DNA of 64,000 nucleotides from positions 10,679,001 through 10,743,000 of the forward strand of contig NC_060113.1 in assembly GCF_021155765.1 (NCBI RefSeq). The letters are read 5' to 3'. The notes under the pieces are model-generated. The model saw only the letters and a program-made list of their open reading frames with translations, was not told where the DNA came from and ran no database searches. Positions within the stretch are counted from its first letter, which is position 1. Every line of letters begins with the position of its first letter. The position numbers and the translations under genes are program-made. The stretch comes from Diprion similis. Its lineage: Eukaryota; Arthropoda; Insecta; Hymenoptera; Diprionidae. Shown here piece after piece: positions 371-25,470 of the stretch.

Positions 371-1262
371 TGTTGAAACCCAGTAGAAGGTAGCTCCGGA
401 GTAGATTTCTTACAGTGCAGTACTCCAGAAACCAGTTATCAGTGCCGATGAACATGAAATAAGTAATTAAATCAGTAACAAGGAATAAAAATTAATTATT
501 GATTGTAAACACAAAGTTTAGGAGCACAAAAAGTTAGCGATCACAGCAAACGTACTTGACAAATGTCCTAATACCCTCAAAAACCCTCAAAGACTCCGTT
601 GAATAGTTGACAAAGTTTATGCAAGTCCATTGTACAACAGTCGATGTTCCGTTAACAAAGAAGGGTTCACCAGACATCCAAGTACGAAAAGATAAAAAGG
701 ACAACAGTTAATTTCACAGTGTAACTCATGTTACTGAAGAAAAATTAGGAAACAAAGCAATAACGTACAGGACAATCATCCCATAGCTCAAGGAGACCAA
801 TCTTCACTTCCGTGATAAAAATAAATGGATCGTTGAATCTCAGTAGAAGGTGCCTCCGGAGTAGATTTGTTACAGTGCAGTGGTCCCGAAGCCAGTAATC
901 CGTACCGATAAACATGAAATAAATAAATAAAATCAGTAACGAGAAATAAAAAAAAATTGGGTATCTTGAACACAAAGCTTAGGAGTACAAAAAGTAGCAA
1001 GTCACAGTAGACGTACCTGATGCAATACCCTAAAAAAATCCTCGCTGACTCCGTTGAATAGTTGACAAAGTTTACGCAACTCCAATGTACCACAGTCGAT
1101 GTTCAGTTAACAAAGAAGGGTTGACCAGACATCCAAAAACAGAAAAAGAACAGCAGTCAATTTTACAGTCTAACTCGTATTATTGAAGGAAAAAGTAAAC
1201 AAAACGATAACTTACCGGACAATCGTCCTACAACTCAAGGAGACCAATCTCAACTTCCCTAC
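371..1262. repeat. Tandem duplication, about 460-bp period
   Basis: The unit beginning CCCAGTAGAAGGTAGCTCCG (380) is repeated as CTCAGTAGAAGGTGCCTCCG (840). The two units stay alignable through the string ending CAAGGAGACCAATCT (about 793-808 and 1237-1252). The units are imperfect, so the duplication is not recent. The other copy of this transposon (9180-9360) has only one unit. Confidence 0.75.
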
Positions 1263-1265
1263 TGA

Positions 1266-2444
1266 TCACCCATGATCATCTGGCCACTGGTTCCCTTTCA
1301 ATAAATGCTCGAAATGCCCTCCAGCAGCTGCAGCGCAGTAACCGAGCCGATCGTAAAATGCATTTGTCGTGTTCGATATAACATCTGGCGACAGGTTCTG
1401 CAGAATGTCCAAAATTCTGGCTTGTAGTGCTGCAAGGCCTTCAATTCTACCTTGTGCATAGAGAACATTTTTCAAATGGCCCCACAAGCCGTAGTCCAGA
1501 GGGGCGAGATCAGGGGAACGAGCTGGCCATTCCACCTCCGAGCTTCCTCTACCGATCCAACGTCTAGGGAACTCTTGGTCGAGGTAATCCCGGACGGCTC
1601 GTGTCAAGTGAGCCGGGGCTCCATCCTGCTGAAACCAAACAGGTTCGCCCTAAAATACAGAAAAAGACACGTTACTTTTAGTAAGCATAACAAGTATTTA
1701 TTTCAAAATCACAGGGAGTCTGCTAATAAAAAGGCCCCCCTCACACGATAAGGTACACTCACGATTTCTTCTTCAATCAGCCTAAGAGCTGGTACGATGT
1801 GGTCCCTAAGTAACCGAAGATACTTTTCACCGTTGAGGTTCCCATCGATGAAAAATGGCCCGATCAGCCGATTACCAATGGCGCCGAGCCAGACGTTGAG
1901 CTTCAACGGGTACTGCGTGCCGGCCTGAATGAACAGACGAGGGTTGCTTCGGCACCAGGCTCTGGTGTTCTGCCTGTTGGGTTTTCCGAGAAGTATCACC
2001 GTACTTTCATCGGAGAAACAAATGCGACTCAACAAGCCCTCATCTGCATTCAGACGTTCCATCATCTCTTGGCTGAAGCGAAGACGATTTGTACTTAGCT
2101 TCACGCAGCACTCTTCTGACCGACGCCTTGGAAATCTCAAGCTCCTGTGCAACATGGCTGGTTGGCTTGAAGGGATCCTCTTCGATGGTCAAGCAGATGT
2201 CCAGCTTGGTATCCCAACTTAGTTGCCGGTTTGGCTGGACCACTTTCTTCGTCCTCTCGTCGACACTCCCAGTTTGCTCAAACTTCAGGACCATGTTCCT
2301 GATTGTCGTGATGGACGGTATCGGTCGATCCGGGTGGGCAGCCGCGAAATGATCTCTATTTTCCCGGTACGTCAGTCCTTGATGGTGATGCTTCACCAGG
2401 TCCACTTTTTCTTGAACAGAAAACTTGTAATTAGGCATTTTCAA
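1266..2444 (-). pseudogene. mariner-like transposase (DD37D type), frameshifted, with one intron
   Basis: This is a DDE transposase of the Tc1/mariner superfamily, which would cut and paste its own element in the nucleus. The N-terminal part (2444 down to about 2090) has the helix-turn-helix region. The catalytic part has SDEST (first Asp), FQQDGAPAH (second Asp) and WPARSPDLAPLDY (third Asp). I count 37 residues between the second and third Asp. A canonical intron is visible: the exon ends before GTGAGT at 1762 and resumes after TTTTAG at 1650, giving 113 bp that restore the frame at GEPVWFQQDG. A one-base frameshift lies near 2085-2100, where two overlapping reading frames join. No convincing terminal inverted repeats were found. 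It sits inside transposon copy A. Confidence 0.8.
1650..1762 (-). other. Intron within the mariner-like transposase
   Basis: On the minus strand the 113 bp begin GTGAGTGTACC and end in a pyrimidine-rich tract TTTCTGTATTTTAG. Skipping them joins LIEEEI to GEPVWFQQDGAPAH, a normal mariner sequence around the second catalytic Asp. The sequence between contains stop codons. Introns are uncommon in this superfamily. Confidence 0.75.
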
Positions 2445-3109
2445 CCTGTAAAAAACTTCACAAAAGGATTACGATACTTATCAAACACGAGGTTCACCAC
2501 GTGCAATCTTTTTGCAAAGTGGCCAGTTTACGCGCGCGGGAGAGTTTATATTCGCGGGTGGAGAAGTTGGGAAACTTTACAGATAGATGATTTGATTGGC
2601 TGATATCGGTCGCGACGTTGGTCTCATCCAATCAGGTTGTGGTAGCTGCGTGATTTTCGCGCCCTCGCGGGTGTTTTTCAGTATGCACAGAATTATGATA
2701 CGTACTATTGTCTGGCTAAATACCACGTGGTGATCTGTTTCTGACTTTCAGTTCAAGAAATCGATATCCTTCCTTATCATTACGTGGGAAAACATGGAAA
2801 TGGTTCCGCGATGAGAACGGCGACGTTTAATTACCGCGTGTTCAGCGGTTCGGGTAAACAAATTTTGATAACCTCGCGAGCATGATGTGACATTCGCGAT
2901 TCGATGAATTTTGTTGATTTCGGGAAAATATGGACTATAAGAAAAATTAACAATTCAAAGTCAATAAATGGAACTTACAAACGCATCACCTGAAACGATA
3001 TCCAACGATCGGTAACTCGTGATTGTAATTTTCGAACGTGGAGTCAGTTGATGTCACATGGCAATGAGTTACAATAACGTTCATTTTTCATGCAATTTTT
3101 TACAAATCA
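2445..3109. other. Non-coding remainder inside transposon copy A
   Basis: No reading frame of interest. The segment is absent from the other copy of the transposon and probably includes the 5' flank of the mariner-like element. It contains a GC-rich stretch near 2530-2680. Confidence 0.4.
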
Positions 3110-5502
3110 GTTGTGTCCAAAAATATTAGAAGCTCCTAACTGATCATGATACCTTCTAATATTTTCAGATAGGAAACAATCCATCATCGAAGTGGGACTA
3201 AAATTGTCAGGCATCGAAGCGTGTAAGTAAATTTCTGATTCTGTGATCTTTGCATATGACAATATTTTCACGTGTATTTAATGATAAAATTCGTCTTTTT
3301 TGGTAGGCTCAAAGTTTCAAGTGTGGTTAATGGGAGGAAAATCATACCTTACCTAATGGTCCAAACGTTGATGGCAAGGACCCTGATTTCTCGATTGGTG
3401 CCACCATTCCAACCATCGACCCTGATTGTTCCGTTGTTTCATCAGGCAACAGATACCCAAGGGAATTTCTTCAGGTCGTCGCCACCTTCTGAACATCAGT
3501 TGAGACAAAACTGAAGAGCACGACACGCCACAGATCATGATTTCTAAATATTCGATCATTTTAGATTGATCGAGCCAATAGCAATAAGTTTGTTTTTCAA
3601 CAGTTGCTACTAATTAATTTTGCCGAGGAATCATTCCGTGCACCATTATAATCCAAGCGGTATTATTAGCTCGCATTTCTTTTCAAATTTTATTCTTTTT
3701 AGTTTTGATATTTTATTTCTTACTCTCTTGGTATTCAATTCAGATGAATAGTGTTTCAAGTCGTGAATCAGATTCTACGAATGAGTTTTGATAGGTAAAT
3801 TGAACCAATCTCAATCTAACAATGTTGGATAACTTCAGTAGAAAATATCTTTGAAGCCAATATTAATTGACGGTATCATCTGACTAGCTAGTTGCAGCTA
3901 TCATCCATGCTTCAGTCTCGTTCAACTCCAGCAACGTCTACAGAATGCATTCACTTACTAGTACACGTTACAAATGATCACTTGGTCTACAGTAGGATTT
4001 ACTTGCTGGCTAACTTTTTTATTATGAATCTCTATCAGGGAGTTATCCGGTAACTTCTCGATAGCTTGAAACCAGATTCAATTTTACACTCTTACCATGG
4101 TCCTTCACTTAGACTGAAAGTTTGTGAATCTACATTCATTACAATTACTTCTGCATCCCATATTAACACTGTCCGAAACAAAAAAATCTCATCCTGAGAT
4201 TGGAAATGGAACTCGCAACGCAAAAGTTATCTAGTGGCACAAGTTGAAAACAAGGAATTTTATAACGGTTTCAGCGACATAGGAATTCCTTCCGCATATT
4301 CATGTTACCGGATGATGTTCCGAGCACTATGAAGAAGATACTTTATTGGATTTAGGTTTGAGTGTATTGTTCTTAAATAACAGCAAGTAGGAGATTATTT
4401 GAGAAAATGTTTTCATGAACTTCGTTCAAAATTAGGTATTCATTTGTTTCAAAGGAACAAGGGCTAGAATCTTGAATTTGATAAGTTAATATCTTCATAT
4501 TATTGATCTGAACATTTCTCTAAAACATAGTTATCCTGAAAGGTAATTGTGATACTAAGGTACATTTTGAAAATGTCTATTTTCAAATTGGGTCACAGAA
4601 TGTTCCTCAGTTTTACTCTTCGGAATAGATTTTCTTTGTTTCGAACTGCACCAACATGAAATTCAGAAATTATTCCAGTAAATGAAATATTTTGATTTTA
4701 GTATTAGGTTCCCTTCATTTATTTAATCGAACATTGCTGAAAATTCACAAAATGAACTCGAATAATTATTGGGTAATTTTCTGTAGTCGTGACAACAATT
4801 TTGTTGAACTAAATTCTAGAAAAAGAGATTCACAGTTGTGTTATTAACGGTAAGATATTCCAATTTCTTGAACAATCAAGAATCATCAAATCTAATGTTA
4901 CCTTCTGAAATTACCAGAGAGTGACAAAGTTGATTAAAAGATATGTTGCACGCGATATGAAATTAAAAGAAACTGTAAGACCCACAACTTCTTCCAACAA
5001 CCAACAAAAGAAGCGATAATGTTTGCATGTGTCATGAATTGAATAGGGGGAGCAGATATCAGCGAATAGCAGAGATGCAATTATTTTTACTGTATTGTCT
5101 GTTGATAGAAAAAAATGTCATTTTTATTCTTAATGTATGAAGTAATGAAAATGATTGAATAAATTGGCCCTACTTACCTGCTTTGTTTCTTCCAAGCACC
5201 AAACATTTAAACAGATTTCTTGTTTCACTCGATTAAGACGAATTGTAAAAGAGCATTAGCATTAAATTCCGACCGTTCTTTGAAGAATCAACTTTCTGGC
5301 GCAATGACAAATGCTTCCCAAGCCTTTGCGAGTCACTACCTCGATTATTTGACACTCTAACCTCAAAATAGCGTATGAACTACATGGCCGACAAAAACAA
5401 AGGTTGACAGCTGAAATTCGGGGTGGCCAGACTGCACGGACGGCGGATTTAAACTCGCGCATGCGCAGTTCCTGTTTAGTTTCTAGAGATGGTCCCGGTA
5501 TA

Positions 5503-11963: not shown

Positions 11964-13037
11964 TTATCCAGTTGCTAATTTTATTTTGTTATTGTGTACT
12001 ACCTTGGTCTTGTAGTCGTTAATCTGTAGTTTGGCGTAGATATTATCAATAATATCGATTATTTCGTACGGCCCGTGGTAGTGATCGTCGAGTTTTGTCC
12101 TCGTCTCGCTTATTAGATACACCTAGTCACGGCTTGAAAAGAACGCTCGTTTACATTTTTGTCGTACTGTTTTTTAGATTTACTTTTAGCGTTTTTACTG
12201 TTATTTATCGTGTCGTCCCTGGTTTCTCGTAGTTTTGTGACGATTTCTCGTAAATAGTCTTCGTATGTCGCGGTCTCGGTCTGACGTCTGTTAATGTTGA
12301 AGGGCAGTCTGGCCACGGATCCGAAGATCAATTCATGTGGGGTAAATCCAGTGCTTTCGTGGACAGAGGTATTGTACGATAGCATCGCGAATATGACCCA
12401 CTTGTCCCAGTCGCTTTTGGTCCAAATGTGATGTTTCAAATATTCGATGAGAACGTGATTACTCCGTTCGAGGGAGCCATTGGGGCCATGGGGGCCGAGG
12501 GGGGACTGCGGGTAGATGCCGTCGTCTTGATTTGTTTGATTCTAAAAACTTTGGCCAGTTCCTTTATAACTGGGCTCAGTGAATTAGGATCCTGGCCGGT
12601 CAGAATTGAAAGTGGAGCTCCGAATGTGCAGATGAATTTTTCTGCCAGAGCTTTCGCGATAGTTTTCGAAGACGTTTCTTTCAGGGGTATTACTGTGGAA
12701 TATTTTGTCAAGTTATCTTGGATCGTCAATAGGTACTTATTTCCTGAGGCTGTTGTTGGTAAGGGCCCTACTATGTCCAAAGAAATTTTTTCAAAGGCTG
12801 TCGTCGGTGTGTCGGTGATGAGCATTGGCAATTTAGTCTTATTTCTAACAAGCTTTTTTCGTTGGCAGCTGTCGCACTCTCGTATGAATCGGTAAATATT
12901 TGGTTTCATGTTAGGCTAACAATAAAGGTTACGGATTCTTTTGAAAGTTTTTGTTACGCTCTTGTGACCTCCTATTACGGAGCTGTGATTCTCCTGAATT
13001 ATCTCTTCGCGCTGTTCAGGTGAAGGTGTGTAAATCT
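11964..13037 (-). pseudogene. Integrase of the macro-domain Gypsy element
   Basis: This enzyme would insert the cDNA into chromosomes. The HHCC zinc domain is at about 12840-13010 (ENHSSVIGGH, CDSCQ). A TGG-to-TAG stop at 12916-12918 interrupts it. The core has LDIVGP (first Asp); the second Asp position reads TGQDPN, so the Asp of TDQG appears to be Gly. The Glu survives as NGSLERSN in a shifted frame near 12455-12475. The C-terminal GPY-type region (HGPYEIIDI ... VVHNNKIKL) ends at TAA 11964-11966, after a TAG near 12118. It is inactive as it stands. Macro domain B is joined directly upstream in the same frame. Confidence 0.85.
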
Positions 13038-13400
13038 CGCAAAGGCATATTGTTACTATAATTTCTGATTCATTAAATATCCCTCGAATCACATTTTTGA
13101 TCGGTAGCCAATTTAATTTATCAAAGTCGCTGCCTGTTTTTGAAATTGAGAATGAGTAACGTAATGTCGTGCGATTGTAGTATTTCTCTGTTGTAATGAG
13201 GCTGAAAACAAATCTTTTCTCCATTGGTAAAATGATCACTGATTTTACTTCTGGTTCCTGTGCTCGTAGCGTTTCTGAGTTCAAGTATCCAATGTCTAGT
13301 GATTGTTTACCAACACCCTTTCTTGAAATAAAATCCGCAGATATACAGTGTACGTAATTATCTTGCATCATTAAGATGTCGTCGTTTCTTTCGAATATGT
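13038..13400 (-). pseudogene. Macro domain B (OARD1-like) fused upstream of integrase
   Basis: Macro domains bind ADP-ribose, and OARD1/TARG1-type members remove it from proteins. The frame shows NYVHCISADF...KGVGKQ, corresponding to the HCIS-ED-..GAGIA loop of OARD1. It continues with RFVFSLITTEKYYN (RYIYYLITK...) and FDKLNWLPIKNVIRGIF (LDRLQW...), ending VTICLCE. About 18 residues seem to be missing before SISKTGSDFDKLNW, where the family has a helix and the GCGLD loop; the Asp is kept but GCG is GSD. The reading frame is continuous with the integrase zinc domain. Family assignment is by recognised motifs, not a search. Confidence 0.75.
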
Positions 13401-13794
13401 TTGTCAGTTGTAGTGGTGCGTTGACGAGATCTTGTTGCCGAGGCTGAAAATGAGAGCAGGCGGGTATGGGTAGAGCATGATTCCGGTTATCAGCTATGAC
13501 GTTGGCATCAGGTGGGCCTGTAGTGTAACGTGCCAGAATTCGCTCATTATATCATTCAAACAATTTTATCAATCTATCCTTCCGATCAGAAATAAATGAA
13601 GGTGTAGGGCAAAACGGAACCCCACAATCTCGAGCGGACCGCAGCCGTCGGCAACAAGCTTCACTCGAGCCGCCGCGCGGTACCGACTCCCTCGCTATTT
13701 CTCGCATAAACAAAACAATGCAAAATCATGAATAAATAGAGCTAAATTAATCGATAAAACCGGAGAATCAGATCTGCTCATTCCTATTGAGGTG

Positions 13795-14205
13795 GTGCAT
13801 CGCGGATCGTACTTCGGTCTTTCTGTCTGTCAAAACCCAATAGTTGATTAACTACTTGCATTTGATACTCGGAGCTACAAGTCCCATCATCGCGGATCGC
13901 ACTTCGGTCTTTCTGCCTGTCTCCGGTTTGTGGTCGAGAGTTAACGTAGAATCCTTGCTTATTTAAATTATTTTTCAACTCTTCTCGTTGGCGACGCATC
14001 GCGGATTGTACATCGGTCCTTCTGCCTGTCAAAACCGTTTGAATTTGCTCATAACATTTTTGGATTTGAATTAAATAACTCTTCTCCCTGGGAAAGCATC
14101 GCGGAGTGTACTTCGGTTTCTCTGCCTGTCGGACCTTTTGACATTACGAGTTAAATCAACAGTGGTGTCCGCAGATTGATTTCGGTCTTTCTTGCCCGCT
14201 AAACT
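13795..14205. repeat. Five imperfect tandem repeats with an invariant core
   Basis: The core ATCGCGGATCG(T/C)ACTTCGGTCTTTC (shown as pieces) recurs near 13798, 13890, 13996 and 14097, with a more divergent copy near 14165. Spacing is roughly 90-110 bp. Spacers differ while the core is kept. On the minus strand the core reads DRQKDRSAIRD in a short frame (13784-14032), but the frame does not cover all units, so a nucleic-acid role is likelier. Confidence 0.7.
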
Positions 14206-16747
14206 GTCTTGATTTTTGAAAATAAAGAGCAGATCTTAGAATTTAAATTCATTCTTCAGCTTCCTGCAATTCGCCCAGTCAATTCAAATATACAACCTTC
14301 CGTATTTCGCACTATTGCAAATGTTACGTGACAAGTGTAACCTTGTTCTCCCGTTAAATATAAAATCTCACATCGTCAGCAGGCCCTCGCAAAATTTAGA
14401 AGGACAAAGCCGAACGCGAAATTATCATGTAATTTATAGCATCCCAATAGTGGATGTATTGCCATTTTATTATTATATGTTCATGTACTGAGAGTTCACT
14501 ATCAATAATTCCTTTCATCTCATCGAATGATAATATATAAATATTAATTGTCCGACTCACTTTACCGAATTATTTAATAACAGACTTAACCATAAGTACC
14601 CATCCAACCCAAATACACTTAATATTGTGCTAATTCCTAGACACCCAACACCTATATTCCTACCGCACATACGTTCTCATTTCCTGAATAAACGAAAAAT
14701 TGACAAATTTCTATATATGTTGTAACGGGCTTTTTACCTCAACAGGGGGAAGGCGAGGTCGGCACAGAGGCTCGTTTACAAAAAATGGCGTTGACCAACA
14801 CGGCAATAGAAAGATGAAAAAAATTAAGATTGACGGCGCCGCAGGACAGGTGTTGGGCGCCAGGCTCGAGAGAGCCGTAAGAGACTATACTCTTACCAGA
14901 TTCGAAATTTACCGTCCAATAGCATTCGTTCGCCGACTCGAACGGCGAACCAAACTCACACAACCAAATCTCAAAGCGAAACTATAGCAGGGGCAAGCAC
15001 AAACAAGAACAGCCGACTAGCTAGCGGTGAGGGGAACGTGGGCGCGAAGGTAAAATAGTATCTTTGATAATCGAATGATTATAGATGTAATTACCAGCAT
15101 TTATTAACAAGCAACGCCGTTACGGCAAGGCAGAAGGCAACAGGCAATAAAATATTTACACGGCAAGCGGTCTTATCGGTGACGGTACGCTTCGATACAA
15201 TTCAAAATAAATACAAATAAAACAAAATAGCATAAAATGTAACACAGCAACAAAATTAAACAATTCAATATAACACGGCAAAAATCAAGCGGTATAAGCT
15301 AGAAGCGACGAGCGGCAAGCGACCAAGATAGGCGAATTATAAGCGACGTAAAATCATTAACAGTTCAATAACTCATGCGACTACAGAATCGTCGTGGAGC
15401 AAATTCGTTAACACTTTCAAAGCGCAAAACAAGGCAGAACAATTCCAAAAACAAACTTGCTAACAATCTAACAGTTTCACAAGTACAAGATAATCTTCCT
15501 TCGCTTTTTCTATAATATCGGCACGGTCGCCTGTCGCTGCTTGACGGTGGTAGTTACGCTCGGCAACGACGGCATGGGCGCACACACTCACTCACAGATT
15601 CTCTCTCTCTCTCACACTCACGTACTTGGTACGCGGCCGGAAAGCGGCACAGTACACAATCTATTACAAGTTATACGGTACAATAAAGCGGCAAAAGATA
15701 AACGAATGAACAACTAGAGTATCTTATCGTAATTATAACAACTCAAGGTAGCAATTAAAATCAGAAATACAATTGAATAGAAAAGCTTAGCTACCACGAG
15801 GCTCGCGGGCTTTCACACAAAATGGCCGACCGCAGCCGGCCGGCAACCTGTTACTGGCGAAAAATGGCCTGAGGTCGTAGAGAATCTATAGCCAGCGAGA
15901 TTCGGGATGGTGACAGCCTACCTTTTTACGGCAAACAACGCCCGGTTCTTCAAAAAAAAAACAAGAGCGGCAACGGTTCCTCCTCGGCAGAGACACAGAA
16001 AAAGGACAACAACTGAACTCGACTTCAAATTCTCAATACAATTTCCACAGCAATTATGCACTACGATAAATTACAGAAATATCAGCAGCGCAGCGCAAGG
16101 GAGAGTGAGGTGGCCGCCGGCCCTCGGCGATCACGATCCCGCGGTGACGCTACGGGAGGGGATGATAGGTAGATTGGCGAGAGACAGGCGGGAGCCTAGG
16201 TAGCCGGTCTGTTCGCCGCGCTGTGCTGCGGGTTGCGAGGGTGGTCTGGCGATGGCGGAAATGTCCTCTCGGCATCGGCGAGCCCAGGGGGAGACTGAGT
16301 CCGGTTGTTTGTGGGTGCCGGGTGGCAAGGCCGGTCTTATCGGGAGGCTCAGGTGGAGGCAACTCGACCCCTGGGCGGCAGCGGCAGTATGTCCTTGGCG
16401 GCATCGAGGTCCGAGCAAGCAACAGCGCGACTACTGGGTCCGGGGCTTCGAACTCCACGCCGGTCGTCCTGTGGTCCCTCCGCGTTTCCCGCGACGGCAG
16501 CGCATGGTGGTCGTTGGATGGCGGCGGCATTGGCGGCGGCAGTGGCGGCGGCAGTGGCTGTCACCTCAGAGAATGGGTTGGGGGAGTAACAAAAAGCATT
16601 AGCAACAATACATAAATCTTAAAGCTAACTCTGGTTGTTCATTGGCGGCACGGCAGGACTCTCCCTTGCTCTTTAAGAGCGCTTGACGCGGCCGCCTGGG
16701 AGTGGAGGTGCGGGTCGGTGACGGGCTGGTAGACCCGCCACGTCACA
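14206..16747. other. Body of the solo long LTR, no gene supported
   Basis: AT-rich to about 16080, then GC-rich with ggcggc-type triplets (16500-16565). Frames in the GC-rich part on both strands overlap one another and look like composition effects. A CT/CA microsatellite is at about 15590-15625. Confidence 0.5.
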
Positions 16748-17099
16748 ATGTATACAGTTCGCCTTGTCTACCCAATGTATTGCCTACGCTCATTTTCTTG
16801 TACCAAGATGATTCAATGCCCATGGTAACGTCCAAACGTCCTGAGAAGGAACTCATTGCTCTCCGTTTGACATTTCCGCTTCGTTCCTTAGATAACATTG
16901 CTAGAAAGCAATTGGCGCCCAACAAAACATAACATATAGAAATATAAAGTGCACTCGGCCGGAGTGTCACACTAGCACACTTGAATGTGTTGTGTGTCGG
17001 TTCGTTTGATTTGTATCGTTCCGGCTGCGCGATACTTGTTGTTTGTTCTGGTAAGTCTATAATGCCATTGTTCGAGTCAGGTACGGCATTTTGATTTCT

Positions 17100-17502
17100 T
17101 TCGAACGAGCAAATATTGAGTTGAACATCTGAGTATCGGAAAATGTGGTATATCATTATTTCAACGATCTTCCAGTCTAAGCTATCTAGTCCGCAGCCTA
17201 ATTTTGGTATTGAGAGTGTCTGGCAGTTTTCTGAATTTAATTTTAATGCTAAGGTTCGTAGAGTTCTATACATGCTAGGGTACATAGGTTTTTGAAAATA
17301 TCGCTGTTTGGTTACCAAATTGAAAATCTTGACATCGTTGTACCGTGTTACTATCACGTCTCCGATGTTAGAGGAATGTGATTTAATCGTGTTGCGATTC
17401 ATGATGATGCGCCGTATCATTTCTTGAGCAATTCCGAATCCTAAAACAATCGGCTTGCATACAATGCGCTATGTTGTCATTTCGTGTGAATATGTCTTCT
17501 TT
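17100..17502 (-). pseudogene. Macro domain A (OARD1-like) of the Gypsy element, one-base frameshift
   Basis: The start reads EDIFTRNDNIAHCMQAD, then after one extra T (about 17453) VLGFGIAQEM, equivalent to the HC...GAGIA phosphate-binding region. The second half has NLVTKQRYFQKPMY and the signature SIPKLGCGLDSLDW, ending VQLNICSFE. The GCGLD motif, including the Asp used by OARD1-type hydrolases, is intact. It is about 135 residues long, normal for the family. It follows the disordered linker after RNase H and precedes macro B by about 90 residues once the solo LTR is discounted. Family knowledge: ADP-ribose binding or removal. That a retroelement uses it against host ADP-ribosylation is inference. 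Confidence 0.85.
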
Positions 17503-18310
17503 TGTTTCAGTAATGTTTTGTGGTTTGTGTCTTACGGTCGTGTCACGCTCGATTACGAATTGTTCAAATGATGGGATAGTTTTGATAGGGCGAGGTGTAG
17601 TAATGATAGGCTTTGTTCCTAACGCAGTAACAGCGTAAGGGGTTTTCGTTTTAATTTTTTTCATCTCTGTTGCTGACGCTGAATTGTCACTGAGTTTATG
17701 TTTTGTCGATTTCTGTTGTTGGTAGTATCTACTGCGATCAGATGCAGAGTGAGGGTCAGCCGAACCTACTTGGTAAGCGTGGCGGTTATTCGAGGGGAAG
17801 TGAGGTGATTCAGCTGAGACGGCCTGTGGTTCAGTCTTTCTCGGCCGAAGATCGTAGGAATGAGATCGAGTGCGACTAGTGTTCGCTATCCTATCGTCTT
17901 GGGGTACAGGTAGTATATAACTTGTTTGTTGGTGAGTCACATCGTATTTCTCGGTAATCTTGTGTCGGTCGGAGTTTAAAGGGGCGTTCGTGGACAGGTA
18001 GTCGTGTTTCTTCTTTATTTTGGCGTTAACGATTGGAAAACTATCTGTAGTTGTATCGGATGTATTTGTTGCATTGAAACTATCGTTATCGTATGTCGTC
18101 ATAGGTAAAGCGGTCGTAGCGTAAGTAGGGAGTCGTTTGGACAAAGGTACGTCATCTAATGTCTCGTTATCTGTGGATGAATCTGTTATTGTTTCATCAT
18201 TGTATGTGAAACGTTTATTTCTTTTCGATTTATTAGGGAGCCTTCGGGTCAACGGTTAATCATCATCCGACCCTTTGGGTAGATCGTCGTCGCTTGAAGT
18301 GCAGTTGGGA
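17503..18310 (-). pseudogene. Disordered linker of Pol between RNase H and macro A
   Basis: About 270 residues rich in Thr, Ser, Asn, Arg and Lys, without recognisable domains (for example RSHSYDLRPRK, KKIKTKTPY). The frame is open from 18252 down to the start of macro A and is joined upstream to the RNase H tail through a short broken stretch (18253-18316). Usual 17.6-type elements go almost directly from RNase H to the integrase zinc domain, so this region is additional. Confidence 0.6.
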
Positions 18311-18316
18311 ATGTGA

Positions 18317-19717
18317 TTACGTTTCGCGGGTTTTTAGTAGGCTGTTAATCGGTTTTCGAGAGGTATATTGTCCATTTAGATATCTGTAGTTGAGTCCGGG
18401 GTCGCGGTCGGAATTTGTGGTACAGAATGACATTTCCGAGTTCGAGCAGGGCTTCTGACGTTTTTTAGGATCGGGGTTTGGCGATTCGTCAGTACTTGGT
18501 CGTGGAAGGCGAGGAAATCGGTGGGTTTCTTTTTTGTGTTTCGAAAAAATTTGGGTTAATGGTAGGTCTGAGTTATCACTGCGCTGACGTTTGATTGGTG
18601 AAACTTGTATTGTATCGACCGGATTACGTGATAGTGCATCCGCGTTCGCATTTTTTATACCCTTCTTGTGTTTCCATGTGTAGTCGTATTCTGCCAACTC
18701 TACGCCGGTTCAGCCTAAACGTGAATTAATATCTTTCGCGTTATTCAAATGTAGGAGAGGTTTGTGGTCTGTCACAAGGATAAATTTATGACCGTACAAG
18801 TATGGTCTGAAGTGTTAAATTGCGTCTTCAACGGCTAGTAATTCTTTGTCAATCACGGAGTAGTTGGTCTCGGCTTTCTTGAGTGTACGCGACATGTAAG
18901 CGATTGGGAGGCCATTGCCGATTTTGCCTTGGCTGAGGACGGCACCAATAGCATATTGAGATGCGTCGGTTGTCAGGATGAATGTTTCGTCGAATTTCGG
19001 ATACTGTAAAAGGGGTGCTTCGCGAATAACGTCACGCAATGATTCGAAAGCCAATTGTTGATCTGACGTCCAGAGATATTCAATGTCTTTCTTCAATAAC
19101 CCCGTGAGGGGCTCAGCGATTCTGGCGATGCTGCTAATGAAACGTCTGTAGTAACCGATTAATCTGAGGAATTGTTTTATTAGTTTCGTCGTCTTCGGGA
19201 ATGGACAGTCCTTAACGGCAGATATTTTGTTCGGGTCGGGTCTAACACCGTTTTCACTTATTATGTGGCCTAGGTACGCCACTTCTTTCCCCAAGAACTG
19301 GCATTTTTCGGTTTACAGTAATAAGTTCGCTGTCTGGAGTCGTTCTGCTGGTTGCTTAAATTCAATTTCATGTTCTCTTAGATTTCGCGCATGAATAACA
19401 ATATCGTCCAAATAGACAAAAGCGATGTTACCGTCTAATCCCGATAAAACTCGGTCCATGATCCTTTGGAAGGTTGCAGGTGCGTTTTTCAAACCGAACG
19501 GCATTCTGTTGAATTCGTAGTGACCTTTCGGTGTCGAAAATGCGGTTTTATGGCTGTTAGATGGATGCATAGGGATTTGGTGGAAACTGGATGCGAGATC
19601 AAAGATGGAGAAGTATTTAGCGTTACCTAGTTGCTCAAGGATGTCCGTAATGTTTGGGAGTGCGTATGCGTCACCGATAGTTCTGTCGTTCAGTTTCCTA
19701 AAATCTATCACCATTCT
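18317..19717 (-). pseudogene. Reverse transcriptase and RNase H of the macro-domain Gypsy element
   Basis: RT motifs in order are VIDFRKLNDRTIGD, FDLASSFHQIPM, GLKNAPATFQRIMD and VYLDDIVIHA, then the connection region (YLGHIISENGVRPD). RNase H has TTDASQYAIGAVLSQ, YSVIDKELLAV and ILVTDHKPLLHL, ending DALSRNPV near 18640. The catalytic YLDD is intact. All stops seen (19718-19720, 19313-19315, 18815-18817, 18711-18713) lie in the same frame as the coding sequence, which points to point decay without indels here. Confidence 0.85.
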
Positions 19718-20783
19718 CTATCGTCTGTTACCATCTGTGTCGGGTTTTTTCGGTACTACCAAGACGGGTAAGTTGTATGGTGACGGTGAGGATTTTATAA
19801 TGTCTTGCTGTGGGAGTTTTGATACCTGTCCTTTTATTTCGTCTTTGCGTATCTTCGGGAATCGGTATTGTTCAACGTTGATCGGGGTATCGTCTGTCGT
19901 TGGGATTGAGTGGAGAGCTTCAGAAGTTTTTGGTGGCAGGTTACCCGGTAGATAGAAAAGGTGGTTGTACGTGGTTGTTAATTCGATGACTGATCTTCTT
20001 TCTTCACTGTTTGAATCTGTGAGGTTCAGTGTATTAGTGACGGATTGTATGCGTGAGGATGCAGTATTAGTGCTCGTTGGTATGGAGTCAGGTTGTGTTA
20101 CTGATTTGTTGATGTGGAGTATATTCCGGATCGGATGTGTGGTGGTATTAGTAATTTGGGCGGTGCTGTTATATATGATAACCGCGATGTCAGTTTTGGC
20201 GAATGTTGTTGCGATTGTTCGGATGATTAATTCCCTTTTGGCCTTGCCTAATTCATTGGTTAAGTTCGGTATCGAGATGGACGTAATGTGGTCGTGTATG
20301 AGTTTATTTTTCACGTCGTTGACAGAATTGTGGGTATCTCCGATGTTTGGTTCATTGTAGTAGGCGTCTGTGACTATTGCGTGGTATACGAGTCGTTGTG
20401 AATCGAGCATTGTGTCCTCAATCGCTTTACCGACTGTCCGGTTTTTAAGATACGATATTAATTCGTATTTATTTAGGCTAAATGAATTTAGGATTCGACT
20501 AGAATTGCCGCGAATGATACAAAATGTTGTAGGTATAAATTGTAATATTGCATCTGGGGCGTGTGTTATGTCGTCGTCGGTGAAAGAAAGTGCACCATCT
20601 GTGACTGGCTGCAGTTTTACCGTTGGTATGTTTATCTCGACGGTTGATTCGTTTGTGTTGATTGCGTACGTATATGCGATACCATTCCTATTAGTTACCA
20701 TCGCTTTACCGCAGTGGATCTTATCCCCTAGTGTAACGTTATTGATGTATCCTTGTGTTAGTTCCGTATTTGTGCTTCTTAAC
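19718..20783 (-). pseudogene. Pol segment from protease end to RT start, with macro-like domain C
   Basis: The frame resumes immediately after the Mag-like insertion (TTAAC at 20779-20783) and reads GEALVT-like text (CGKAMVTNRNGIAYTYAIN), usual after protease in 17.6-type elements. After macro-like domain C it continues with LFYLPGNLPP, QYRFPKIRKDEI and SPYNLPVLVVPKK, the standard RT entry. It ends at TAG 19718-19720. Confidence 0.75.
20168..20512 (-). other. Macro-like domain C (divergent), between protease and RT
   Basis: Residues 139-214 of this Pol segment, from VYHAIVTDAYYNEP through SISIPNLTNELGKAKREL to FAKTDIAVIIY, align without large gaps with the second half of macro A (FNLVTKQRYFQKP, SIPKLGCGLDSLDW, YSDVQLNIC). 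Spacing between the landmarks is within one residue. The GCGLD loop is replaced by NLTNELG, so catalysis is unlikely even if the fold is kept. The first half is too divergent to align by eye. This is weaker than A and B. Confidence 0.45.
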
Positions 20784-20997
20784 TGTTGTGTTTCCACATT
20801 AAAACACAATGCATTTTACTATTATAATTTTATTGTAGTAATTCAGTTGTTACAGTCGAGCAAATCTGTAGCGTGTGTGCACTCTTAGCCATTGTAGACG
20901 ACAGACGTAGAGACGGACAAGACGGACAACAGACCCGTCACATAGTATAAACATGGTATATACAAGGTTGCGTACACCTTCACACACATACCTCACA
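20784..20997 (-). repeat. 3' LTR of the Mag-like Gypsy element
   Basis: 214 bp, TGTTGTGTTTCC...CCTCACA as read on the plus strand, about 96% identical by eye to 25259-25470. TTAAC lies outside it (20779-20783), matching the far side (25471-25475). Confidence 0.95.
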
Positions 20998-21010
20998 TTC
21001 CTCCACACTT
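20998..21010 (-). promoter_or_regulatory. Polypurine tract of the Mag-like element
   Basis: On the minus strand AAGTGTGGAGGAA lies directly before the 3' LTR; this is the expected plus-strand primer. Confidence 0.6.
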
Positions 21011-21065
21011 GATTAATAAACTTTCCTTGATTTACAAATCCAATCTATTTCTAGGTTTTATTAAT

Positions 21066-21485
21066 CTAGATGATTTTCGTACTGGCGTAATCTAGACTTA
21101 TTTTTACGTTCGACAACGCTTGTCCCTGGAGAATCTCCTGGTCTCCTGAATTACGTAAACTATCAGCTTCTGTCGCTGCACCTTGAGCTTCGTCTAGCAT
21201 AATTGATTCGGTTTTGTCTAGATTCTTGCAAGGTTCATTAGTCTCTCTTTGAATCACTTCTTTTGCTGTTGAAAATTCCAGACCCACGTTTAACTCAACA
21301 TCACTGTCCGAAGACTCAACTCTATTTCTCAAATGATCCGCATGGCAAAAACGAGACTTTTCCTCAACTAGAACTATATACGTTACAGGACTCATTATTT
21401 TAATTATACACCCCGGACTCCAATTTACCTTTTCTCATATGACCGATTTTACGAAAACTTTTTGACCCACGTCAAATGTCCTTTC
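21066..21485 (-). pseudogene. C-terminal Pol tail of the Mag-like element
   Basis: The frame 21066-21395 (109 residues) reads SPVTYIVLVEEKSRFCHADHLR near its start. This resembles the GP-.-SY-V-.-G---HAD-LR tail of Mag/K02A2.6-type integrases, followed by an acidic stretch. It is separated from the integrase core by a stop or frameshift near 21400-21486. Confidence 0.6.
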
Positions 21486-23234
21486 TCATCCAACAGCATT
21501 AGCAACTGCCTCATGTCGTTTTTCTTTCATGTCACAGTTAGGACTAGGTTTGAGCATGGACAAGGGTGTTCTGGGTTTTCGCTTTAAAAACAATTCCGTC
21601 GGTGATTTACCAGTTGTTACATGTGGAGTGTTTCGGTAAGAAAAAAGAAAATGATCCAGTTTGTGTTGAATACTTCTTTTGATTCCTGCTCGATCATCTT
21701 GCAAATCAAGCTTAGCTAAAGCTTTTTTAACCAATTTAACAGAATTTTCAGCTAGACCGTTTGATTTGGAACGATACGGAGGACTCGTTCGATGTTTAAT
21801 ACCATTCCCGTGAAAAAAAATTTCAATTTCTTTGGAAAGCAATTGAGTGCCGTTATCACTCACCACCAGTTCAGGCAATCCAAACATTGCAAAAAACGTA
21901 CGAAGCTCAACAATGACCGATTGTGAAGTGGTGGTTGTCATTACAAACACTTCCACCCATTTTGAAAAACTATCCCTCAAAATTAATAGCTCAGTACCTT
22001 TATACTCGCCAAAATCCAGATGAACCCTTTCTAAAATGTTTATTGTCCACGACCATGGATGCGACGTCACAGCTTCAACATCGTCTACCATTCTTTGACA
22101 GAACTCCCACTCTTTGACTAAATTTTCAATCGCCTTGTCAATTCCAGGCCACCAAACAAAACTACGTGCTAACATTTTTGTTTGAACAATACCAGAATGA
22201 CCTTCATGTAACAAATCGAGAACCTTTTTTTGTAATAAATCGGGAACAAGCACCCTATTTTCCCAAATTACACAATTTTGCTCAACAGACAATGTATTTT
22301 TACGCAAAAAGAAAGGTTTTATCTCGTCAGACGGACAAGATTTTGGCCACCCAAACAACGTAAAGTCGAGGAGTTTTGCCAAAATTTTATCCTTTATTGT
22401 GAATTTACTAATTTCTTTTCCAGACAATGGCCAATCCTTAATCGATGAAATATTATAACATTCACCTCTCTCATTTGATTTACTCTGCAAAGGCAATCGA
22501 CTCAGCCCATCTGCATTACCCATATCTTTTCCCGGCTTATATTTTATGTCATATTGATAAGACGATAAAATTATTGCCCAACGCGTTAAGCGCGCTGTAG
22601 ACATAACTGGGACTCCTGATTTGTTTCCAAAAATTTTTAAAGGTTTATGGTCAGTTATTAATACAAATTTGCGACCAGCCAGAAAAATATGGAATTTCTT
22701 AAGACCAAAAATTATCGCTAACCCTTCTCTCTCGATTTGTGCATAATTTTGCTCCGCTTTTGTCAGTGATTTTGATGCGAACGCAATGGGACGTTCTTCC
22801 CCCTTTTGCATTATATGCAAAATCACCGCTCCGACACCATAAGAAGATGCGTCACAAGCTAAAACTACCGGTTTAGTTGAATCAAAATGTGTTATCACCT
22901 GATTACAGAGCATTACCTTTACATTTTCGAAAGCCTGCTTACAATCTTTTGTCCATTTCAAAACTCTATTTGATTCTAGCAAATAATACAATGGTTTCAA
23001 AACAGTAGATAGATCTGGTAGAAAACAAGAATAATACCCAATGAATCCCAGAAAAGAGCGAAGCTGAGAAACATCTTGTGGCATTGGAGCTTCTAAAACC
23101 ACCTCAATTTTTTCCTTAGTCGGATGACGACCTTCACTATTTACACGAAAATCTAAAGATTCAATTTCAGTTCTACAAATCACCGATTTATTTTCATTAA
23201 TGTGAACTCCAAATTCTTGCAATCTACCGACCAA
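21486..23234 (-). pseudogene. RNase H and integrase of the Mag-like element
   Basis: 582 open residues: the RT connection (SLDFRVNSEGRHP), RNase H (LACDASSYGVGAVI, QIEREGLAI, LITDHKPLKIF, NADGLSRLP), the integrase zinc domain (HEGHSGIVQTK...CQ), then the core with HLDFGEY, VVSDNGTQLL and AENSVKLVKK giving the D, D, E residues. About 20 residues around the second zinc Cys pair look altered (EFCQRMVDD). The length fits the last two thirds of a Mag-type Pol. Confidence 0.9.
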
Positions 23235-24050
23235 CTTTTTTGTGTTTTCTCAACATTCTTCTACAGAAGAACCGAAAGTTATCATAACATCAAGATATGA
23301 AATATTTTTTTTTTAAACCCAAAAGCATTTGATCTATTACTAATTGAAAAATTGCCGGTGCTGATGAAACACCGAAACTTAATCTTGTATATTGAAACAA
23401 CCCAACATGAGTATTAATCGTTAAAAATTTACGAGATTCTTCCGACAATTCTAACTGTTGATATGCGTTACATAAATCAAGTTTCGTAAAGAACTTGCTT
23501 CCCGGTAGAGAAGTGAACAAATCTGTTGTATTATGCAGAGGATAATGATCTATGCTACAATTCGGATTAATGGTAATACTGTAATCTCCACACAACCTTA
23601 TTCCTTTACCACCAGCTTTCCTTACTACAATTACAGGTGTAGCCCAATCACTGTGTAAAACCGGAACCAAAATATTTTCTTTTACAAGCCTCTCTAACTC
23701 CTCCTCTACTTCTTCACGCTTAGCAAAAGGCACAGGCCTTGCTTTACAAAATTTTGGTACCGCGTTATCTTTTAAAACAATGGTTGCCTCAACTTTTTAA
23801 TTGCCGTACCAGGCATTTTAAAACAGTCAGAAATTTTTTTTTTAACTTACACAACAAAATGACGCTTGACTCTACGTTATTGACAACTTCTAATTTCCCT
23901 GAATACAATACTCTTTGAATTAACGGAATTTTCTCAAGCCAATTATGCCCCACTAAAGGGATCTTACATTTTGCATCCACTATTGTTATAGACGAATTTT
24001 TGTACACAACACCTCGAAATTCGACCGTTACTTTTGCTTCTCCAATTATT
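23235..24050 (-). pseudogene. Protease end and reverse transcriptase of the Mag-like element
   Basis: RT motifs are KLDLCNAYQQLEL and FGVSSAPAIFQLVID. The active site is damaged: after a poly-A-induced frameshift near 23310, the minus strand reads ISYLDVMIT, so one Asp of the YLDD box appears deleted. A further stop is near 23251. The upstream frame 23789-24007 has PLVGHNWLEKIPL, the usual link after protease. Reverse transcription by this copy is not expected. Confidence 0.8.
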
Positions 24051-24051
24051 T

Positions 24052-25163
24052 TTAATTTTTGATTTGAATACGTCGTAAGAGAATTGGAATGATCTTCCGT
24101 TTTGGAAAATGCCCTCTGAACACAATTTCAGGCATAATGCTTACTGCTGCACCAGAATCTAATTCAAAACAAATATCTTTACCCTCGACCTTCAAAATTT
24201 CAAAGAAATCGTGATTTCTTTTGTTCGCCTGAGTAGTACTTGTTGTTGACTCTCCGTCCAGGTGATGTAGACCAAGCTCTAGATCGACCTCGAAACCTTC
24301 TTCATCCGACGCTTCCTCTTCGTAGACAATTTGATTTACGTTTTGGTTGCACATTTTTTTTAAGTGTCCTTCTTTTGGACGTTTCGAACAAGTGTACGTT
24401 TGAAATCTGCTATCATCAGGTTTATGATTGCTATATCCACACCGCCAATACTTTTTAGTTTTGTTTAACGATTCTGTTGAACTTTCTTTATTCCCTCGTT
24501 TCTTTTTGAAAACGTTAGTTGCTATTTTTTTAATAGAATTTTGATTTAAATTAACTTCAAGAGACATTTTAGAAACATCATTATGCGCCTTTTCAATCGC
24601 TGTTGCCACCGCTACTGCTTGTTCAAACGTTTGAGAATCATCGCTAATTTCAAATTCTCAATTCATCAAATTTCGAATTCAAATCTTTCGGGTCTGAAAG
24701 ATGGCTTTGGCGATAAATGATCTCCAATTAACTTGATTAACTCATCATATTCTAATTCGTGAGGTTTTCTCGGGGAACACAAGTCTCTTAACAAACCGTA
24801 CACTTTACTACCAATTACAGTAAGTAGGGTTGTCACTATTAAATTGTCATTTATTTTGCTACACTTAACAAAACAGTCAAATCTTTCGACGTACGCCTTC
24901 CATTTTTCTTCTTCTGGGCTAAACTTCCCAAACACGCTCAGATTCACAGTTGATGCCGCCATTACACCCAACCCTGTTTCAAATTTTTCGTCTTTAACTT
25001 CACCAGAAGAAATACCAGTCACTTTACTGGATCTAGGAGCTACGTTCGTACTACTCAAACTTCTTTCACTTTTTATAGATAGATTCTCAACTACTTTACG
25101 AATTTTAACCAATTTATCAAACTCGACAGCCTTTTCTTTATCTTCAGAAGTGTTTGAGCTCAT
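24052..25163 (-). pseudogene. Gag and protease of the Mag-like element
   Basis: The start ATG is at 25161-25163. The capsid part contains FGKFSPEEEKWKAYVERF and ends near 24666. The nucleocapsid has a decayed zinc knuckle pair (YWRCGYSNHKPDD, TCSKRPKEGHLKKMC). The protease active site FELDSGAAVSIMPE is intact. A frame break lies at 24610-24665. The arrangement and motifs match the Mag branch of Gypsy elements. Confidence 0.85.
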
Positions 25164-25236
25164 ACCACGTGGGGTCTTGTTTTAAAAAGTTAATTTTCCA
25201 CGCTAAATTTAAGAAATCGATTTCACTGCACTTACA

Positions 25237-25258
25237 GGTTGATCGTCCTCGTTGCCAC
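25237..25258 (-). promoter_or_regulatory. Primer-binding region of the Mag-like element
   Basis: Immediately after the 5' LTR the minus strand reads GTGGCAACGAGGACGATC, the expected TGG-start and position for a tRNA primer site. The tRNA was not identified. Confidence 0.5.
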
Positions 25259-25470
25259 TGTTGTGTTTCCACATTAAAACACAATGCATTTACTATTATA
25301 ATTTTATTGTAGTAATTAAGTTATTACAGTCGAGCAAATCTGAAGCGTGTGTGCTCTCTTAGCCGTTGTTGACGACAGACGTAGAGACGGACAAGACGGA
25401 CAACAGACCCGTCACATAGTATAACATGATATATACAAGGTTGCGTACACCTTCACACACATACCTCACA
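25259..25470 (-). repeat. 5' LTR of the Mag-like Gypsy element
   Basis: 212 bp, partner of 20784-20997; the target duplication TTAAC follows at 25471-25475. Confidence 0.95.

What the first reader, a model, noticed from the sequence alone, without database searches (positions are those of the whole stretch)
13038..17502. Gypsy retrotransposon with two OARD1-like macro domains in tandem between RNase H and integrase
Seen: macro A (17100-17502) keeps HCMQAD, GFGIA and SIPKLGCGLDSLDW; macro B (13038-13400) keeps HCISADF, KGVGKQ, FVFSLIT and FDKLNW. With the solo LTR between them discounted, the linker joins in frame and macro B runs directly into the integrase zinc domain. Known: OARD1/TARG1 macro domains bind and remove ADP-ribose; viral macro domains counter PARP-based defence. 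Inference: this 17.6-type lineage acquired and duplicated a macro module inside Pol, perhaps to counter host ADP-ribosylation or to act on integrated DNA. I know of no described element with this layout.
Basis: partly seen in the sequence, partly recalled or inferred. Interest (0 to 1): 0.88.

Follow-up and report, generated by a model that had tools for sequence, protein, structure and literature searches.

The report
Retrotransposons carrying paired ADP-ribose-eraser domains
A family of insect retrotransposons carries, inside its polymerase gene, two copies of a domain related to the cell's own ADP-ribose-removing enzyme OARD1: one keeps the catalytic residues, the other is worn and sits against the integrase, so these elements may erase a chemical mark that host cells use in DNA repair and silencing.

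Summary
Both macro domains lie where stated (- strand; A 17103-17517, B 13042-13401), between RNase H and integrase, in a broken copy with a frameshift in A and two inserts. A matches solved human OARD1/TARG1 at 2.2e-12. B is weak alone (0.021) but clear as a profile (hhalign 99.5%, 3.8e-23; controls under 1%). The genome holds relatives with 20 uninterrupted Pol frames of 1676 aa or more with A; the 11 I read all carry A and B. TARG1's Lys and GCGLD are kept in 12 of 14 A rows; GCGLD in 0 of 10 B rows. A is under purifying selection (dN/dS 0.06 in the one informative pair; RT 0.01). A sawfly protein has A, B and integrase; aphid-type proteins have one macro. The window family has a third, degenerate macro between protease and RT. 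One family has lost A. Best reading: a captured, duplicated OARD1-type eraser (A) plus a worn copy (B) fixed to integrase; catalysis and target are inferred. Eight searches of an open-access library showed no such layout; fish retroviruses with macro genes are the nearest precedent.

The parts
17103..17517 (-). Macro domain A (OARD1/TARG1 type, keeps K of QKP and GCGLD), with a frameshift near 17446-17459 in this copy
13042..13401 (-). Macro domain B (degenerate; K84 position is R; GSDFD instead of GCGLD), directly before the integrase
20165..20581 (-). Third, degenerate macro domain N in the protease-RT spacer (E at the K84 position, no GCGLD)
19313..19717 (-). Reverse transcriptase piece (RVT_1)
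18815..19312 (-). RT end and RNase H piece (RT_RNaseH_2)
17518..18709 (-). RNase H end and linker to macro A (two open stretches, 18709-18317 and 18255-17383; no Pfam match)
12853..13020 (-). Integrase H2C2 zinc domain, split over two frames
12532..12798 (-). Integrase core (rve) piece; 26.2 bits, under Pfam's cut-off of 32.6
13524..16972 (.). Insert between A and B, absent from 5 of 5 sister copies; inner ~2 kb repeat 14713-16754
20787..25470 (.). Insert in the 5' part of the element, empty in 3 of 3 sister copies that cover it; holds another Gypsy-type frame (21486-23249)

Best explanation
A lineage of Ty3/Gypsy retroelements captured an OARD1/TARG1-type macro domain at the RNase H-integrase junction of Pol, and the domain was duplicated before the present families split. 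Shown: layout, homology, sequence constraint. Inferred: copy A is an ADP-ribosyl hydrolase (Lys/Asp dyad of TARG1) carried in the particle or integration complex, where it removes ADP-ribose from proteins (or DNA ends) that host PARPs modify on the element's cDNA, integration complex or target chromatin, easing integration or escape from PARP-linked silencing. Copy B, next to the integrase zinc domain but without the GCGLD loop, is a largely non-catalytic module that has become an N-terminal extension of integrase, working as scaffold or ADP-ribose/chromatin tether.
For: A and B in 11 of 11 uninterrupted Pols read, of 20 listed; order PR-RT-RNaseH-macro-IN by Pfam in pieces of three (L014, L019, L023; no PR hit in L023). 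Athalia rosae protein with A, B and integrase. K84 plus GCGLD in 12 of 14 A rows; GCGLD in 0 of 10 B rows. dN/dS L019 vs L025: A 0.06, PR 0.07, RNaseH 0.03, RT 0.01, linker 0.27, B 0.18. The 7 B rows in the tree form one clade, 92/93 (3 further B rows were left out beforehand). B is present where A was not detected (L034, L035, L036, L037), and seen next to integrase in L034 and L035. 74 of 101 RT copies at 57% identity or more have a macro hit 0.4-5 kb downstream, against 0 of 49 at 51% or less. LTR stretches seen are 100% identical in 3 of 4 copies of the 1801 family, so recent. Roles of Lys84 and Asp125 of TARG1: PMC9411070 passages. Gypsy-superfamily elements tend to be up in Drosophila parp-1 mutants: PMC7712786 passages.
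Against: The locus of L034, with an uninterrupted 1896-aa frame and a nearly full envelope-like frame, has no detectable catalytic macro in Pol or in the flanks read, so A is dispensable there. Four of 10 B rows keep both a Lys and an Asp in the aligned columns, so B may not be wholly inactive. The PARP link in flies may be indirect, as its authors say. The strong dN/dS rests on one pair; close pairs give A 0.00-0.71. B is looser: 1.50 and 0.90 in two 1801 pairs and 2.08 in L034-L035 on 9 changes. A alone is not one clade.
Confidence: 0.55

Rival explanations
1. A is a reader, not an eraser: both macro domains bind ADP-ribose on chromatin and tether the integration complex to PARP-marked sites, as chromodomains tether other Gypsy integrases; catalysis is incidental.
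For: B lies directly before integrase in the tandem families, and L034 and L035 keep B there without a detectable A. The chromodomain analogy is recalled; the chromodomain on integrase is stated in an abstract listed.
Against: The Lys and GCGLD loop of A are kept in 12 of 14 rows, more than binding alone should need; B, the one nearest integrase, is the worn one.
Confidence: 0.2
2. The macro acts on nucleic acid: A removes ADP-ribose from the element's own cDNA or RNA, as TARG1 and bacterial DarG do for thymidine-linked ADP-ribose, countering a host enzyme that marks foreign nucleic acid.
For: DarG is the only NCBIfam model at E 0.1 or better for window A (1.7e-9) and L023 A (1.6e-13), though far below its cut-off (37.4 and 50.6 against 250 bits). 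PMC9411070 passages treat TARG1 and DarG together on DNA.
Against: No such host defence in insects is known to me (recall; not searched). Likeness to DarG is expected from class membership alone.
Confidence: 0.12
3. Passenger: the domains are a tolerated insertion at a permissive linker and do nothing for the element.
For: A was not detected in one family with an uninterrupted Pol; the linkers around it evolve fast (dN/dS 0.27); some close pairs give A up to 0.71 and B up to 1.50.
Against: dN/dS of A 0.06 on 40 changes, near PR and RNase H; Lys/Asp kept across families about 35% identical to the window copy in A; three further arrangements with extra macros.
Confidence: 0.08
4. Chance or host-gene artefact: weak macro-like sequence, or a host OARD1 gene beside a transposon.
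For: Pfam Macro is below cut-off for the window pieces and over it at only 17 places of the genome.
Against: Uninterrupted frames through RT, A, B and IN; Pfam Macro above cut-off in L023 (31.8 bits vs 22); the host's OARD1 genes lie elsewhere and bear an intron.
Confidence: 0.01

Closest known systems
OARD1 / TARG1 / C6orf130 (cellular ADP-ribose glycohydrolase; ALC1-like macro class with bacterial DarG)
   Same: Sequence (L023 A vs human OARD1 2.3e-36), Lys84 and GCGLD Asp125 in A.
   Different: Embedded in a retroelement Pol, in tandem with a degenerate copy; activity untested.
Epsilon-like fish endogenous retroviruses with macro-domain genes (Basta et al. 2009, known here only through one passage of PMC4977317; the paper itself is not held)
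   Same: An LTR retroelement carrying a macro domain.
   Different: There described as additional open reading frames in vertebrate retroviruses; here inside Pol of insect Ty3/Gypsy elements, tandem, at the RNase H-integrase junction.
Captured domains in other LTR elements: AlkB-like RNA demethylase in orchid Ty3/Gypsy (PMC9289625, abstract and outline seen); dUTPase between RT/RNase H and integrase in some lentiviruses, chromodomains on integrase (recalled)
   Same: A host enzyme domain fixed in an LTR element; the dUTPase occupies the same Pol junction (recalled).
   Different: Different enzyme; no tandem of working-type and worn copies.
Viral macro domains (coronavirus, alphavirus; recalled)
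   Same: Possible counter to host ADP-ribosylation.
   Different: Different macro class as far as I recall, RNA viruses; not tested here.

Membership tests
Macro domain, OARD1/TARG1 type (domain A) | Significant sequence match over the domain | tested here: met
   window A 2.2e-12 and L023 A 2.3e-36 to solved OARD1; Pfam Macro over cut-off for L023, L028, P0121, P0123, under it for window, L014, L019, L025
Macro domain, OARD1/TARG1 type (domain A) | Lys84 and Asp125 in GCGLD | tested here: met
   12 of 14 A rows; exceptions A_L012 (broken copy) and A2_L028
Macro domain, OARD1/TARG1 type (domain A) | ADP-ribosyl hydrolase activity | not testable with these tools
   needs protein
Macro domain, OARD1/TARG1 type (domain B) | Homology to the OARD1 profile | tested here: met
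   hhalign probability 99.5, E 3.8e-23 over 132 columns; linker, RT and PR controls 0.9% or less. Single sequences against the PDB are not significant: 0.021, 0.64 for L019 B
Macro domain, OARD1/TARG1 type (domain B) | GCGLD loop | tested here: not met
   0 of 10 B rows; K84 column kept in 5 of 10, both K and D columns in 4 of 10
Ty3/Gypsy LTR retroelement | PR-RT-RNaseH-IN order with Gypsy-type RNase H and H2C2/rve integrase | tested here: met
   L014, L019, L023 in overlapping pieces (no PR hit in L023). L026/L033 have PR after IN
Ty3/Gypsy LTR retroelement | Long terminal repeats | tested here: met
   direct repeats flanking Pol in 5 of 12 loci tested (L014-L017, L020); none seen in the other 7 stretches, which may end short of them
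17.6 clade of Gypsy | RT groups with named 17.6 elements | not tested
   no named 17.6 sequence was fetched
Insect endogenous retrovirus (envelope-bearing Gypsy) | Envelope gene after Pol | tested here: met
   Monjiviricetes fusion glycoprotein: partial frame in L023 (4.1e-72) and nearly full profile length in L040 (3.8e-224); not found by Pfam after Pol in L014 and L017; window family not tested

The most novel reading that the evidence does not exclude
The tandem is a two-part anti-ADP-ribosylation device on the integration complex: B, fused to integrase, recognises ADP-ribose (or holds A in place) and A erases it from cDNA ends, integrase or target nucleosomes. That would mean insects use ADP-ribosylation of retroelement intermediates as a defence and that this lineage evolved a dedicated counter to it, comparable in logic to DarT/DarG.
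Probability: 0.15. Interest if true: 0.95.

Novelty: new variant of a known kind. Interest (0 to 1): 0.8.

Why it matters
Domains that parasites capture and keep show which host pathways matter to them. A TARG1-type eraser kept under constraint in Pol points to ADP-ribosylation as a pressure on insect retroelements, a question that can be tested with one purified domain. The elements also give a natural series of arrangements (one active-type macro; active-type plus worn; worn only; three macros; macros around a displaced protease) for studying how integrase gains new N-terminal modules.

Tried and rejected
Chance similarity: rejected by profile searches with reversed and shuffled controls and hhalign controls. 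Host gene beside a transposon: rejected. Pfam alone misses window A and B. Search with the whole RNase H-IN region of L019 gave no hit, probably because words came from low-complexity linkers; macro A alone as region worked (8 hits of 192 candidates). Viral contigs: 3 scans, no relative. Fish ERV source paper not held. PMC11642819 proved unrelated: a flavivirus macro-like domain (passages). A macro in the PR-RT spacer or N-terminal part of L014, L017, L019, L023, L025, P0123 and P0126 was sought and not found; P0128 has one. Structure prediction not available. A second Fisher test was run on hand-guessed counts and is discarded. My note says the catalytic residues are kept in A of all families and lost in all B; the table is milder (2 of 14 A rows lack part; 4 of 10 B rows keep a K and a D column) and the report follows the table. 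The RT tree showed the macro bearers of this genome as one clade (82/98) but held a joined row; the rebuilt tree does not resolve that clade, and I do not claim it.

The OARD1 profile was built from the 120 listed of 235 database hits of L023's A domain, some of which may themselves be retroelement-borne, so its E-values for A lean on that; the PDB matches do not.
Full report
1. What is in the window. The element is on the - strand. Pfam finds RT (8.4e-26) at 19717-19313, RNase H (3.6e-28) at 19312-18815 and integrase H2C2 and rve pieces at 13020-12532 (rve under cut-off). Between RNase H and integrase lie two stretches that match cellular OARD1. Macro A matches solved human OARD1 at 2.2e-12 over residues 24-119 of the frame 17468-16743 and keeps QKPMY and PKLGCGLDSLDW. 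Macro B is weaker alone (0.021). A profile of 120 OARD1-like database proteins finds A (1.7e-32), B (6.6e-10 and 8.2e-6) and a third place, N, between protease and RT (7.6e-9); the best of 2022 reversed or shuffled controls is 0.4. Profile-profile comparison gives B 99.5% probability (3.8e-23) and N 93.9% (1.5e-7), while linker, RT and protease controls stay at 0.9% or less. That N lies after a protease motif was seen in sister copy L012.

2. The window copy is a ruin. Macro A is split by a frameshift (17517-17446 and 17459-17103). An insert of 3449 bases (13524-16972) separates A from B; its flanks are adjacent, with a 3-base overlap, in 5 of 5 sister copies. The insert is composite: query positions ~1190-3231 match about 2 kb at 27 other places among 40 of 301 candidates scored, while the outer parts match only the window there; the translation of 16752-16972 does match other places, so that end is repetitive too. 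A second insert, 20787-25470, empty in 3 of 3 sister copies that cover it, brought another Gypsy-type frame, 21486-23249 (RNase H match 5.5e-29). The sister copies L009-L013, 84-86% identical to window A, are also interrupted.

3. Intact relatives. The unnamed host genome (269 Mb) gives 126 matches to window A at E 0.001 or better, from 150 of 226 candidates scored. Twenty matched places lie in frames of 1676-1841 aa without a stop. I fetched 11 of these 20 (L014-L017, L019-L024, L027), plus L025 (1589 aa); all 12 carry A and B. Pieces of three (L014, L019, L023) give RT, RNase H, macro, H2C2, rve in order, with protease before RT in L014 and L019 but no protease hit in L023. In L023 the Pfam Macro score is above cut-off (31.8 against 22 bits), and its A domain matches human OARD1 at 2.3e-36. 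Pfam Macro searched over the genome finds 17 places over its cut-off, 14 of them at places, three not. LTR stretches inside four fetched copies of the 1801-aa family are 100, 100, 100 and 99.4% identical (107-366 bases), so these inserted recently. Envelope-like frames (Monjiviricetes fusion glycoprotein) follow Pol in L023 (partial, 4.1e-72) and in the 1896-aa family (L040, 3.8e-224).

4. Who has it. RT search with L019: 150 of 569 candidates scored. Of 101 RT copies at 57% identity or more, 74 have a macro hit 0.4-5 kb downstream on the same strand; of 49 at 51% or less, 0 have. The macro list for this was 96 places typed in, not every row of them. Of the 27 without a hit I read 5: L034, L035, L037 and L036 carry a degenerate B and no detectable A (B next to integrase seen in L034 and L035; the other two stretches end or break before it); L038 (RT 58%) has none there, with a RNase H-integrase gap of roughly 65 residues, though one weak hit (0.0063) lies in a frame after its integrase. 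For L034 no catalytic macro was found upstream or downstream of Pol either (L039, L040). Outside this genome, of 8 hits: P0121 from Athalia rosae (a sawfly, recalled) has A, B and integrase; P0123 (unnamed source, 19 members) and P0126 (aphid Uroleucon formosanum) have one macro after RNase H; P0128 has one before RT; the other four are not Pols of this kind.

5. Residues. Catalytic residues of TARG1 are Lys84 and Asp125 (PMC9411070 passages); I placed them by the KPTY and GCGLD motifs of the newt OARD1 row. Aligned to the profile, 12 of 14 A rows keep the Lys and GCGLD; exceptions are A_L012, a broken copy, and A2_L028. Of 10 B rows none keeps GCGLD; 5 keep a Lys, 8 an Asp in the column, 4 both. 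N (3 rows) and M2 (2 rows) keep neither. N_P0128 keeps both. M3 of L026 and L033 keeps the Lys; its Asp lies beyond the frame read.

6. Selection. L019 against L025 (83.4% identical over 1551 aligned residues): A dS 0.461, dN 0.026, ratio 0.06; PR 0.07; RNase H 0.03; RT 0.01; B 0.18; linker 0.27; integrase part 0.16. Close pairs are noisier: A 0.37, 0.71 and 0.48 in the 1801 family, 0.33 and 0.41 in the 1724 family, 0.10 and 0.00 in the 1841 family; L031-L032 0.27; M2 0.15; M3 0.36; window family A 0.19-0.36 and N 0.25-0.34, among broken copies. B in L034-L035 is 2.08 on 1 synonymous and 8 other changes, and 1.50, 0.90 and 0.22 in three 1801 pairs, so B is looser than A. Between families synonymous sites are saturated.

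7. History. The domain tree has 46 rows; 7 short or duplicate rows were left out before it was built (M3_L026, N_win, A_win, B_win, B_L032, A1_L028, B_L026). The 7 B rows in it form one clade (92/93). A rows fall in two places, and holding all 10 A rows of the tandem families together is rejected (p 0.0006), while A+B as one clade is not (p 0.20). So one duplication before the families split is the simplest reading, with either unequal rates or a later replacement of A in the L023/Athalia group. In the RT tree (without P0128 and the window row) the aphid-type rows group with macro-less L038 (92/98), and a clade of all macro bearers without L038 is not rejected (p 0.117): one capture with a loss, or two captures at the same junction, stay open. 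The host's own OARD1 genes are a tandem pair with an intron near the catalytic Lys and do not group with the A rows.

8. Other arrangements. L028 has three macros between RNase H and integrase. L026 has B before integrase and, after it, a worn macro M2, the protease, and a macro M3 with the catalytic Lys; L033 shows integrase end, M2, then after about 2.4 kb protease and M3. The window family has N, A and B.

9. Mechanism. Shown: homology, place, conservation, recent insertion of one family. Inferred: A erases ADP-ribose; B is an integrase extension. In support, mobile elements, many of the gypsy superfamily, tend to be up-regulated in Drosophila lacking PARP-1, though the authors allow an indirect cause (PMC7712786 passages). 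The NCBIfam DarG model also hits A, far below its cut-off, which fits the shared class and leaves open action on DNA.

10. Known or new. Of ten searches of the open-access library, eight bore on a macro domain in retroelements; their listings (20 of 31; 20 of 1273) showed no paper on a macro domain in a Gypsy Pol. Most subscription papers and preprints are not held. One passage reports macro domain genes in fish epsilon-like retroviruses (PMC4977317). An orchid Ty3/Gypsy lineage with an AlkB domain (PMC9289625 abstract) is a parallel case of capture. I rate this a new variant of a known kind.

Noticed in passing
L026 and L033 (G000 C14:3852200-3862100 and C14:5679500-5686500): Pol with the protease displaced to after integrase, between a worn macro and one with the catalytic Lys; same order in two copies, with an extra ~2.4 kb before the protease in L033.
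   Followed up: partly
L023:8177-9100; L040:29-2092: Envelope-like frames of the Monjiviricetes fusion glycoprotein type after Pol, suggesting captured RNA-virus envelopes.
   Followed up: partly
L028:5021-7839: Three macro domains in a row between RNase H and integrase.
   Followed up: partly
P0127 (1530 aa, ENA contig): OARD1-like macro (5.2e-36) with a tyrosine recombinase domain; possibly another kind of mobile element.
   Followed up: no
P0124, P0125 (mayfly Cloeon dipterum): DEAD helicase, Tudor and OARD1-like macro in one protein, an unusual mix for a possible piRNA-type factor.
   Followed up: no
P0122: Glycosyl transferase 90 domain with a C-terminal OARD1-like macro.
   Followed up: no
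P0126 (aphid Uroleucon formosanum): RNase H, macro and Baculovirus F-like envelope in one gene model.
   Followed up: no
G000 C2:13509256-13512692 (L029, L030): The host's own OARD1 occurs as a tandem pair of genes, each with an intron near the catalytic Lys.
   Followed up: partly
window 14713-16754: About 2 kb repeat matched at 27 other places of the genome, inside the insert between A and B; candidate solo LTR.
   Followed up: partly
window 20787-25470: Second insert, whose flanks overlap by 8 bases in three sister copies; holds another Gypsy-type frame.
   Followed up: no
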